From NCBI GenBank assembly GCA_021325615.1, contig JAJPGU010000008.1, forward strand, positions 1 through 64,000: 64,000 nt of DNA, in the 5' to 3' direction. This stretch comes from Nitrososphaerota archaeon (GTDB taxonomy: Archaea; Thermoproteota; Nitrososphaeria; Nitrososphaerales; Nitrosopumilaceae). The first letter of the stretch is position 1. Each line of letters starts with the position of its first letter. Below the pieces are notes generated by a model. That model had not been told where the DNA came from, did not search any database, and saw only the letters and a program-made list of their open reading frames with translations. The translations under genes were made by a program, and so were the position numbers. Below, one piece after another: positions 3,536-49,406 of this stretch.

Positions 3536-4004
3536 ACGGTGGGTTTGTGTGTAAACTGTGGGGGAGTGGATGTTGGATTGTACCCATTCTTACACCAGTG
3601 CGCTCGTAGGAGACCCACCAACCTACCGACATGCTATTGAGGATGGTGGCGGATAAGTACATGCTAAGATTGTTCTGTAAGATGAACACGACTGCTGGTC
3701 GGCGGGCCTGTGAAAAACATGAAAGGAAGGATGAAACTGTAGGATGAGTTCGGATGGGGTTAGGAGGAACTCTTTACTATCACTACAGTTTCAAGCTGAA
3801 GTTCAAACTTATGCCAATTAAGTACTGTGTAAGATTGTTCTAGCATTCATCTTATGGTACGACCTTCCATTTGAGATGGAAAACATCCTGCCTTGGTACC
3901 GCTCACTGCCTTTGCGTGCGTTGCCAGAGGCCGTGCCGGCCGGAATGGGGCGTCTTGGGGGAAATAAGAAAACCGCGGTATCTCGGCTTTGGGGGGTTGT
4001 AATT
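3536..4004. other. Intergenic stretch with repeats, no convincing gene
   Basis: Frames that cross this interval have no recognisable protein character. It holds the stem-loop element at 3731-3794. It also holds an imperfect direct repeat at 3655-3676 and 3820-3841: AAGTAC, four variable bases, then TAAGATTGTTCT. The direct repeats are 165 bases apart and bracket the stem-loop. Confidence 0.5.
3731..3794. repeat. Structured repeat element, copy 1
   Basis: Outer arms GAAACTGTAG (3733-3742) and CTACAGTTTC (3783-3792) pair perfectly, and an ATG precedes the left arm. An inner stem GAGTTC/GAACTC encloses a loop with GGATGGGGTT. A second copy in inverted orientation lies at 49344-49406, with the same outer arms and loop motif but a different inner stem (AAGTTG/CAACTT) that still pairs. 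Paired changes in the inner stem argue that the folded form matters. The role is unknown: small RNA, terminator-like structure or mobile-element remnant. Confidence 0.6.
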
Positions 4005-18820: not shown

Positions 18821-18840
18821 ACTTTGTTCGTTAACAAGGT
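18821..18840 (+). promoter_or_regulatory. 20-bp inverted-repeat operator, site 2
   Basis: ACTTTGTTCGTTAACAAGGT, 12 bases upstream of the TATA-like TTTATAAATT of the 47-residue gene. It matches the reverse complement of site 3 (22378-22397) at 18 of 20 positions. Similarity continues through the spacer and TATA box. Confidence 0.65.
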
Positions 18841-18878
18841 GTCGCAATTTTTTATAAATTATTTGTGAATGATTTAGT

Positions 18879-19022
18879 ATGACGATAATAAGCAACATGG
18901 CAGTCGCATCGCTTGTGATGGTTGTTATGCCGTTCTATGGTGACATTTTTTCAGCAGTTGCCCAAGTCTCTGCAAAATCTCTCATGCCGGTCTTGCTTTC
19001 TACCTTGGGCATTACCTTTTAG
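18879..19022 (+). CDS. 47-residue hydrophobic peptide
   Basis: Begins MTIISNMAVASLVMVVMPFY and ends in LLSTLGITF. It has an apolar N-terminal half that could span or insert in the membrane and a small amphipathic second half. A good TATA-like box (18851-18860) lies 25 bases before the ATG, and operator site 2 is just upstream, so a transcript is likely. Translation is unproven; the RNA itself might be the product. No family recognised. Confidence 0.5.
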   Translation: MTIISNMAVASLVMVVMPFYGDIFSAVAQVSAKSLMPVLLSTLGITF

Positions 19023-19176
19023 GGCCGCTCTCGCTTCCGGAGGTTTGCATCTTTCAGTCACTGCGCCACGGCAACAAACCTGTCGGGATTGCAAAAAATT
19101 TTGCCAACTGCAATTCATTCAGAAATTAATTATTTTTGAGTAATTGCTTAAATACAAGAAAAGAAACTCGTCTTTA

Positions 19177-23491: not shown

Positions 23492-23511
23492 ACAATGTTC
23501 ATGAACAAAGT
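23492..23511 (+). promoter_or_regulatory. 20-bp inverted-repeat operator, site 5
   Basis: ACAATGTTCATGAACAAAGT, with TGTTCATGAACA as a perfect core palindrome. It ends 10 bases before the TATA-like ATTTAATTTA (23521-23530) of the transcription unit that leads to the MacB operon. Confidence 0.65.
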
Positions 23512-23550
23512 TTGACAATTATTTAATTTATCACCGGCGAATGATGAGAC

Positions 23551-23637
23551 GTGGGCACTACTTTAGAATCTACTGTGGAGAACTATTTTCACAACCCCTT
23601 CGATCTTAGTGCCTACTCCACCAGTGGAGGTGCCCAC
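23551..23637 (+). ncRNA. Inverted-repeat leader or small RNA before the MacB operon
   Basis: Arms GTGGGCAC (23551-23558) and GTGCCCAC (23630-23637) pair perfectly. Inside, CTGTGGAG (23573-23580) pairs with CTCCACCAG (23616-23624) with one bulge. The left arm begins about 25 bases after a TATA-like box, at the predicted transcription start. The ABC genes begin 140 bases further on with their own GGGAGG ribosome site, so this may be a structured 5' leader or a separate RNA. A 79-residue frame (GTG 23551 to 23790) crosses it but has no protein-like features. Confidence 0.45.
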
Positions 23638-23776
23638 AATGAATTCAAGTCAACCGTGGAAAAAACTCCAGTCAAATCTGGTTTTGGGACGGATTGTGCA
23701 AGCCGGATTTTTACCATTGTAATAAATTTTTTACAAGGGTATGTAATTATAGCAAGAAAGTCGAGGGAGGATAAGA

Positions 23777-24529
23777 ATGTCTTTGAGTAGGGATAAATCA
23801 GGGACTAGACAAGCGACAACATTGGTAAGCAGGGCTAATGAAACAGCCAACGCTTTAGAAGTCCGAGGCCTTTCAAAAATTTACGATTCCACGGCAGGCC
23901 GCGTGGTGGCGCTGGATAACATTAATTTCACGGTGAAAAAGGGCGAGTTTGTCTCGATAGTGGGCCCATCGGGGAGCGGTAAATCCACGCTGCTCAACAT
24001 GGTGGGAGCCCTTGACAGGCCAACTGTGGGGCAGGTGCTCATCAACGGTATTGACATCTTTGCATTGAACGACTCGCAGATAGCTACAATGAGAAACAGC
24101 CTCATAGGCTTCATCTTCCAGTCGTTTAATCTCATAAACAGGACCACCGTCCTAAAAAACGTAAAACTTCCCGGAACAATATCTGGGATGTCCGTTTCTG
24201 AGGCCAACGAGAGGGCTATGAAGATACTTGACGCGTTGGGGATAGGTGACAAGGCATCACAAAAACCAATCAACCTAAGCGGAGGCCAGCAGCAACGCGT
24301 TGCAATTGCAAGGGCCCTTGTAAACAATCCGGCAATAATCCTTGCCGACGAGCCAACTGGAAACTTGGATACAAAGACTGGTGACGACGTTTTTGATATG
24401 TTAAAGATGCTTTCTCGCAAGTTCAATCGAACAATCATCATGGTCACCCACAACCCCGAACTTGCAGAATCAACTGATAGATCTATTTTGATAAGAGATG
24501 GAGGAATCGAGAAAGATGTCATCAATTAG
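23777..24529 (+). CDS. MacB/LolD-type ABC transporter ATPase
   Basis: 250 residues. Walker A GPSGSGKST (63-71), Q-loop FIFQSFNLI, signature LSGGQ (167-171), Walker B IILADEPTGNLD (187-198) and H-loop VTHNPEL. The short LEVRGLSKIYDST start and AxMRNSLIGFIFQ are typical of the MacB/LolD/FtsE group, which drives shape changes in a FtsX-like permease rather than classical import. GGGAGG precedes the ATG by 7 bases. The frame overlaps the next gene by 14 bases. It operates with the products at 24516 and 26623. Confidence 0.95.
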   Translation: MSLSRDKSGTRQATTLVSRANETANALEVRGLSKIYDSTAGRVVALDNINFTVKKGEFVSIVGPSGSGKSTLLNMVGALDRPTVGQVLINGIDIFALNDSQIATMRNSLIGFIFQSFNLINRTTVLKNVKLPGTISGMSVSEANERAMKILDALGIGDKASQKPINLSGGQQQRVAIARALVNNPAIILADEPTGNLDTKTGDDVFDMLKMLSRKFNRTIIMVTHNPELAESTDRSILIRDGGIEKDVIN

Positions 24530-49129: not shown

Positions 49130-49343
49130 CAGGTTTGGATTTGCAATGCCATCTATAAGATTCTGTCTACTTGAACCATCAGGGCACGGGCGGTGACACG
49201 GCATAATGGGGGGAGTTGCAAGAGCCGGTTTTTTCTCTGCCAGTGCGGCGGGGTGAGTGGGTGTAGGGCGACTATCCGAGACTGGTTGCAAGTAGGTGCA
49301 GATTAATGCACGGATCTTAAATAACGAATGGAAAGAAGGGAGA

Positions 49344-49406
49344 CAGAAACTGTAGAAAAGTTGGATCATGAACAACCCCATCCATTCAACTTGACTACAG
49401 TTTCAT
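49344..49406. repeat. Structured repeat element, copy 2 (inverted)
   Basis: Outer arms GAAACTGTAG (49346-49355) and CTACAGTTTC (49395-49404) are identical to those of copy 1 at 3731-3794, the spacer is 39 rather than 40 bases, and the loop reads AACCCCATCC, the complement of GGATGGGGTT. The inner stem AAGTTG/CAACTT differs from copy 1 but pairs. It lies 12 bases beyond the stop of the gene at 49418 (minus strand), so it could act in that gene's 3' end. Confidence 0.6.

What the first reader, a model, noticed from the sequence alone, without database searches (positions are those of the whole stretch)
3731..3794. Structured repeat with compensatory changes, present twice
Copies at 3731-3794 and 49344-49406 (inverted) share outer arms GAAACTGTAG/CTACAGTTTC, a nearly equal spacer (40 and 39 bases) and a loop GGATGGGGTT. 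The inner stems differ (GAGTTC/GAACTC and AAGTTG/CAACTT) but both pair. Conserved pairing despite sequence change points to selection on structure, as in a structured RNA or a folded protein-binding site. No known family is recognised.
Basis: seen in the sequence. Interest (0 to 1): 0.75.

Follow-up and report, generated by a model that had tools for sequence, protein, structure and literature searches.

The report
Hairpin small-RNA family in acid-soil archaea
The two look-alike hairpins are genes for small non-coding RNAs, about 60 bases long and each with its own promoter, from a previously uncatalogued family in ammonia-oxidising soil archaea (Nitrosotalea and a sister genus); they keep a fixed closing stem and an exposed C-rich loop, and probably act as regulators through that loop.

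Summary
Covariance-model searches found about 45 relatives. They lie in 15-16 of 37 Nitrosotalea genomes, essentially one clade plus G011, G024 and G027. Three genomes of one other genus also carry them; 20 further genera of the family had no hit. Three lines of evidence point to RNA. First, in the outer stem all 39 single-sided departures are G-U wobbles on one strand, and five further pairs changed on both sides. Second, the inner stem of the copy-2 orthologue group covaries (5 of 8 pairs) around an invariant CAACCCCAUCC loop. Third, on that same strand 36 of 40 members have an archaeal TATA box at the distance from the stem base that leaderless genes keep from their ATG, and a T-rich tract follows the stem. 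Copy 1 is therefore transcribed from the minus strand and copy 2 from the plus strand. Lengths (55-76) rule out a conserved ORF; Rfam has no match. About 15 subfamilies share the terminal helix and mostly an unpaired ACCC loop, but differ in promoter and inner stem. Best reading: lineage-specific trans-acting sRNAs recognising a partner through the C-rich loop. The target is unknown; searches for start-codon complementarity were negative.

The parts
3733..3792 (-). Copy 1: small RNA gene of subfamily A, read 3792 to 3733: GAAACUGUAG-UGAUAGUAAA-GAGUUC-CUCCUAACCCCAUCC-GAACUC-AUC-CUACAGUUUC
   Evidence: RNA strand from promoter position and G-U asymmetry of relatives
3783..3792 (-). Copy 1 outer stem, 5' arm
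3733..3742 (-). Copy 1 outer stem, 3' arm
3767..3772 (-). Copy 1 inner stem, 5' arm GAGUUC
3746..3751 (-). Copy 1 inner stem, 3' arm GAACUC
3752..3766 (-). Copy 1 exposed loop CUCCUAACCCCAUCC; AACCCCAUCC invariant in subfamily A
   Evidence: alignment; unpaired in folds
3812..3825 (-). Copy 1 TATA-box motif GTACTTAATTGGCA, start at -33 from the stem base
   Evidence: PSSM 5.2
3823..3840 (-). Copy 1 upstream element GAACAATCTTACACAGTA, shared with the other subfamily A members and similar in C and E
3713..3732 (-). T-rich stretch following copy 1 (putative terminator)
   Evidence: T 47-75% at positions 2-9 after the stem over 40 members
49346..49404 (+). Copy 2: small RNA gene of subfamily B: GAAACUGUAG-AA-AAGUUGGA-UCAUGAA-CAACCCCAUCC-A-UUCAACUU-GA-CUACAGUUUC
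49346..49355 (+). Copy 2 outer stem, 5' arm
49395..49404 (+). Copy 2 outer stem, 3' arm
49358..49365 (+). Copy 2 inner stem, 5' arm AAGUUGGA
   Evidence: covariation in orthologues
49385..49392 (+). Copy 2 inner stem, 3' arm UUCAACUU
   Evidence: covariation in orthologues
49373..49383 (+). Copy 2 exposed loop CAACCCCAUCC, invariant in all 10 subfamily B members
49313..49326 (+). Copy 2 TATA-box motif GATCTTAAATAACG, start at -33
   Evidence: PSSM 6.1
49286..49301 (+). Degenerate copy of the TTGCAAnTAnTTGCAA palindrome that precedes subfamily B promoters
   Evidence: upstream sequences

Best explanation
The two hairpins are paralogous genes of a new family of small non-coding RNAs (55-76 nt; 60 and 59 nt here). 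SUPPORTED BY COMPUTATION: each gene lies in an intergenic region and has its own archaeal promoter (upstream operator-like element, then a TATA box starting 29-37 bases before the stem). The RNA closes on itself through a constant terminal helix of about 11 bp (GRRRCUGURGG/CCUACAGUUUC), contains a subfamily-specific inner stem, exposes an unpaired C-rich G-poor loop (AACCCCAUCC in both copies) and is followed by a T-rich tract. INFERRED: transcription starts at the first base of the helix and ends just after it, giving a compact RNA with both ends locked in the helix. The helix serves as stability element and/or handle for a common protein, while the invariant single-stranded loop recognises a partner in trans. 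The different operator-like sequences upstream suggest that each paralogue is switched on by its own signal, as with sibling regulatory sRNAs. LEAST CERTAIN: that the partner is RNA (G-rich sites in mRNAs) rather than a protein.
For: The family is real: relatives with the same arms and 25-55 nt interiors in 7 of 37 genus genomes by exact pattern; about 36 copies in 16 genomes by covariance model; 2 of 22 genera of the family at E <= 1e-4. It is RNA, and the strand is known: all outer-stem single-sided changes are G-U on one strand, with 5 two-sided compensations and a sixth in L287 (GGAACUG/CAGUUCC). A TATA motif trained on the organism's own genes starts at -29 to -37 with score above 5 in 36 of 40 members on that strand and 1 of 40 on the other; leaderless genes peak at -33/-34 from ATG. 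T is enriched directly after the stem. Structure plus loop selection: the subfamily B inner stem is 95.8% paired, 5 of 8 pairs changed on both sides, 0 of 500 shuffles as high in covariation score, with the 11-nt loop invariant. It is a shared device: an ACCC motif occurs in 33 of 44 members and 12 of 15 subfamilies (shuffles 11.9, maximum 18), at mean unpaired probability 0.94, and the reverse motif GGGT occurs in none. It is an independent gene: subfamily B keeps its place next to the same downstream convergent genes in 9 genomes, although in the window genome the upstream neighbour differs.
Against: No expression data were available. Start regions of 1826 genes show no excess of pairing with the loops over gene bodies or shuffled loops, and no perfect 11-nt target is conserved in B-bearing genomes, so RNA targeting is unproven. 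Most Nitrosotalea genomes outside the clade lack the family, so it is dispensable to the genus. The models used to find members favour paired outer stems, so outer-stem pairing percentages are partly circular; the inner stem, the promoters and the G-U asymmetry are not built into the models, although strand assignment used the model score.
Confidence: 0.6

Rival explanations
1. Protein-binding decoy or scaffold: the RNAs are real, but the C-rich loop is a binding site for a protein (a single-strand or poly-C type RNA binder), and the RNAs titrate it, in the way RsmY/CsrB sequester CsrA.
For: The loop is invariant over orthologues while no complementary target is conserved or enriched. A short similar motif (ACCC) recurs across otherwise unrelated subfamilies, as expected for a protein motif.
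Against: Each RNA carries one motif, not the multiple copies typical of sponges. The loop is invariant over 10-11 nt, longer than most single-protein motifs. No candidate protein was identified.
Confidence: 0.28
2. DNA element: inverted repeats acting as operators, recombination sites or miniature transposons, not RNA.
For: Perfect inverted arms with variable interiors at scattered sites; arms conserved in sequence.
Against: Departures in the arms are G-U wobbles on one strand, which a DNA cruciform or dimeric site would not favour. Promoters are positioned on that strand only. Inner-stem covariation. Orthologues are syntenic in subfamily B with diverged interiors, unlike mobile elements.
Confidence: 0.04
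3. Cis-acting 3' UTR terminator or leader hairpins of neighbouring genes.
For: The RNAs sit close to gene ends (for B, about 80 nt after an upstream gene in most genomes), and hairpin plus T tract resembles a terminator.
Against: Own promoters. Copy 2 persists in the window genome although its upstream neighbour is a different gene on the opposite strand. Downstream genes in B and C are convergent, so it is not a leader.
Confidence: 0.06
4. RNA-modification guide (H/ACA- or C/D-like).
For: Constant framework with variable interior; multiple paralogues per genome.
Against: No Rfam match. No C (RUGAUGA) or D (CUGA) boxes conserved. The 3' ACA lies inside the closing helix and there is no conserved bulged pocket. 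The loop does not pair with tRNAs beyond one 8-nt chance hit. rRNA could not be tested: the own genome has a 3660-bp masked stretch.
Confidence: 0.03

Closest known systems
Intergenic trans-acting sRNAs of archaea (for example Haloferax volcanii sRNA132, PMC6560208; review PMC3432209)
   Same: Short intergenic RNA gene with its own promoter; regulatory function likely in trans.
   Different: No sequence relation was tested or is known. Here about 15 paralogous subfamilies share one invariant terminal helix that begins at the predicted +1, and a shared C-rich loop; found only in Nitrosotalea and one sister genus.
C-rich-loop sRNAs of Firmicutes (RoxS/RsaE, IsrR; PMC5419742, PMC9410917)
   Same: Unpaired C-rich motifs as the presumed recognition element (comparison from search abstracts and own knowledge; papers not read in full).
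   Different: Those pair with Shine-Dalgarno regions; here no excess pairing with start regions was found. The organism is an archaeon that uses many leaderless mRNAs.
CsrA/RsmA-sequestering RNAs (RsmY, CsrB)
   Same: Invariant short motif displayed in hairpin loops; possible protein titration (from own knowledge).
   Different: The motif is ACCC rather than GGA, one copy per RNA; no candidate protein.

Membership tests
Structured non-coding RNA family (any) | Base pairing conserved with compensatory or wobble change across homologues | tested here: met
Structured non-coding RNA family (any) | Independent transcription signals on one strand | tested here: met
   TATA position in 36/40 on the RNA strand against 1/40 on the other; T-rich downstream
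Structured non-coding RNA family (any) | No protein coding | tested here: met
   Lengths 55-76, not multiples of three among orthologues, and no conserved ORF; contrast with the coding case at 23551
Archaeal trans-acting sRNA | Expressed as a discrete transcript | not testable with these tools
   no expression data available
Archaeal trans-acting sRNA | Complementarity to target mRNAs | tested here: inconclusive
   no enrichment at gene starts and no conserved perfect target; imperfect or few targets not excluded
C-rich sRNAs that block Shine-Dalgarno sites | Loop complementary to ribosome-binding regions genome-wide | tested here: not met
H/ACA or C/D guide RNA | Rfam match, box motifs, guide pocket | tested here: not met
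   no Rfam match; no conserved boxes in alignments
Miniature transposon or repeat element | Near-identical copies or insertion at varied sites | tested here: not met
   interiors diverged; subfamily B syntenic across genomes

The most novel reading that the evidence does not exclude
A modular RNA system particular to this lineage: a dedicated protein recognises the invariant terminal helix of every member and presents interchangeable C-rich loops to different partners, so that several stress- or nutrient-responsive promoters feed into one RNA-protein machine. This would be a small-RNA platform with a built-in common handle in archaea, not previously described.
Probability: 0.2. Interest if true: 0.75.

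Novelty: new member of a known kind. Interest (0 to 1): 0.55.

Why it matters
I found no report of post-transcriptional regulation in Nitrosotalea, the acidophilic ammonia oxidisers of acid soils, in the paper searches made here, and Rfam holds nothing like this family. It offers compact, conserved RNA genes with predicted boundaries, strand and promoters. That makes sRNA function directly testable in a carrier such as Candidatus Nitrosotalea sp. TS (a genome with members of subfamilies B and C), and gives a clean case of lineage-specific sRNA birth and paralogue diversification in archaea.

Tried and rejected
(1) Loop as a global anti-Shine-Dalgarno or start-codon blocker: no excess of 7-mers or of duplex energy at 1826 gene starts over gene bodies or shuffled loops. 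(2) One conserved perfect target: GGATGGGGTTG occurs elsewhere only at unrelated sites, and six of ten B-bearing genomes have no site besides the RNA gene itself. (3) tRNA targets: one 8-nt chance match. rRNA could not be checked: a 3660-bp stretch of contig C6 is masked and no rRNA was recognised in C6:1-40000. (4) A wider ncRNA class: the hairpin at window 23551 with CACAACCCC looked like a relative with a different stem. Its 11 orthologues have lengths 87, 93 or 96 and begin with GTG/ATG (one TAT) at the leaderless distance, so it is best read as a small ORF; rejected. (5) A genome-wide scan for any hairpin starting at a predicted +1 gave only mild enrichment (23 against 8-18 in control offsets), so no general claim is made. 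(6) Weak CM hits (L094, L095, L098, L100-L105) were set aside for lack of promoter or pairing. (7) Shared function of neighbours: no common theme was found (Pfam on window neighbours; other neighbours judged only by eye from their sequences). (8) Bacterial hits of the exact pattern (Desulfamplus, Oscillospiraceae, Opitutia and others) were treated as unrelated and not followed up.

Full report
OBSERVATION. Both inverted repeats are in the sequence as described: 3733-3792 and 49346-49404, 10-bp perfect arms GAAACTGTAG/CTACAGTTTC, spacers of 40 and 39. They fold far better than shuffled sequence on either strand. In the window genome (32 contigs, 1.82 Mb, put together from fetched stretches) about 50 inverted repeats have arms of at least 10 bp and spacers of 25-55, but only GAAACTGTAG occurs at two places. 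Rfam finds nothing in the window at gathering thresholds, nor in 13 loci at E up to 1.

FAMILY. An exact pattern search found the arms in 7 of 37 genomes of the genus and in none of 24 other genomes of the order. A covariance model of the nine first copies (R1) found members in 16 of 37 genomes of the genus, one of them a weak and doubtful hit. A model of 36 copies (R2) added a second genus of the same family, with three carrier genomes, and nothing in 20 other genera of the family. Record titles of matching contigs include Candidatus Nitrosotalea sp. TS and soil Thaumarchaeota/Nitrosopumilaceae MAGs. A marker protein shows that the subfamilies of copies 1 and 2 and subfamily C occur in the clade of genomes about 84% or more identical to the window genome; G027, G011 and G024 (74-79%) carry other subfamilies. 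Subfamily B (copy 2) is syntenic: it sits before the same convergent pair of genes (a membrane-protein-like gene and an HD-domain gene) in nine genomes, while in the window genome the upstream neighbour is different.

RNA, AND WHICH STRAND. In the outer stem, 39 departures from the consensus are G-U wobbles on one strand and 5 are two-sided Watson-Crick replacements (L096, L097, L099 and a tentative third own-genome copy at contig C8:17387-17341); none is a mismatch in the first ten pairs. L287 adds another two-sided change, GGAACUG/CAGUUCC. The search models favour paired stems, so the fraction paired is partly circular. The inner stem of subfamily B was not in any model and gives independent support: 95.8% of cells paired, 5 of 8 pairs changed on both sides, covariation score above all 500 shuffles, and no slid register comparable. 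The arms for that count were aligned by hand.

A TATA-box matrix trained on the window genome's own genes (peak start -34/-33 before ATG, the leaderless distance) places the best site at -37 to -29 from the stem base, score above 5, in 36 of 40 members on the RNA strand and 1 of 40 on the other strand. T makes up 47-75% of positions 2-9 after the 3' arm. Together these predict a primary transcript that starts at the first base of the helix and ends just after it. Copy 1 is read from the minus strand (3792 to 3733) and copy 2 from the plus strand. Member lengths (55-76) and indels that are not multiples of three exclude a conserved ORF.

ANATOMY. The constant part is the terminal helix. The variable part is an interior of 33-54 nt with a subfamily-specific stem. 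About 15 subfamilies can be told apart; the larger ones have their own upstream element: GAACAATnTTACnCA-like in A, C and E; a TTGTTCATGAACAA palindrome in C; TTGCAAnTAnTTGCAA in B. The 3' half of the interior is C-rich and G-poor (C 42%, G 9%). ACCC is present in 33 of 44 members and 12 of 15 subfamilies, against 11.9 (maximum 18) members in shuffles, with mean unpaired probability 0.94. Copies 1 and 2, from different subfamilies, share ten identical loop bases, AACCCCAUCC, which are invariant throughout A and B.

HOW IT PROBABLY WORKS (inference). The closed helix protects the ends and may be the handle of a common protein. The invariant loop is the business end. The operator-like sequences suggest regulated expression. 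I favour trans-acting regulation by loop-RNA pairing, but the tests made here for pairing with gene starts and for a conserved perfect target were negative, so a protein-binding decoy is a serious rival. rRNA could not be tested because a stretch of the own genome is masked and no rRNA was recognised around it.

A TRAP AVOIDED. A hairpin at window 23551 with the same CACAACCCC loop and the same TGTTCATGAACA operator as subfamily C first looked like a relative. Its 11 orthologues all have lengths divisible by three and nearly all begin with GTG or ATG at the leaderless distance from the TATA box, so it is best read as a small protein gene.

VERDICT. A genuine, previously uncatalogued, lineage-restricted archaeal small-RNA family. 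The RNA nature and strand are well supported (I put this near 0.9). The mode of action is open.

Noticed in passing
window 23495-23790 (+): ATGTTCATGAACAA palindrome, TATA box and a putative leaderless small ORF starting GTG at 23551 (VGTTLESTVENYFHNPFDLSA...), found in 11 of 12 genomes examined upstream of the gene at 23777; shares its operator with subfamily C RNAs.
   Followed up: partly
window 18824-19025 (+): TTGTTCGTTAACAA operator plus TATA box in front of a leaderless ~47-aa hydrophobic ORF (MTIISNMAVASLVMVVMPFYG...): possibly a further member of the same regulon.
   Followed up: no
window 3658-3675 (-): Second copy of the promoter element AGAACAATCTTA (GAACAATCTTAGCATGTACTTATCC), about 165 bases downstream of the copy 1 promoter on the same strand; it may drive another short transcript or be a partial duplication.
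   Followed up: no
own genome contig C8:17387-17341 (-): Tentative third member in the window genome: GAGACTGCGGAG...CTCCGCAGTTTC, 47 nt, two compensatory changes in the outer stem, TATA box at about -33.
   Followed up: partly
own genome contig C13:6174-6189: Perfect TTGCAAnTAnTTGCAA palindrome between two divergent ORFs (522 and 576 bp): candidate regulon partner of the subfamily B promoters.
   Followed up: no
L049, L050, L060, L061, L071 (Desulfamplus sp. MAG nS315bin3): Several contigs of one bacterial MAG carry the same arm pattern with ~69-70 bp elements matching on both strands; presumably an unrelated repeat family of that genome.
   Followed up: no
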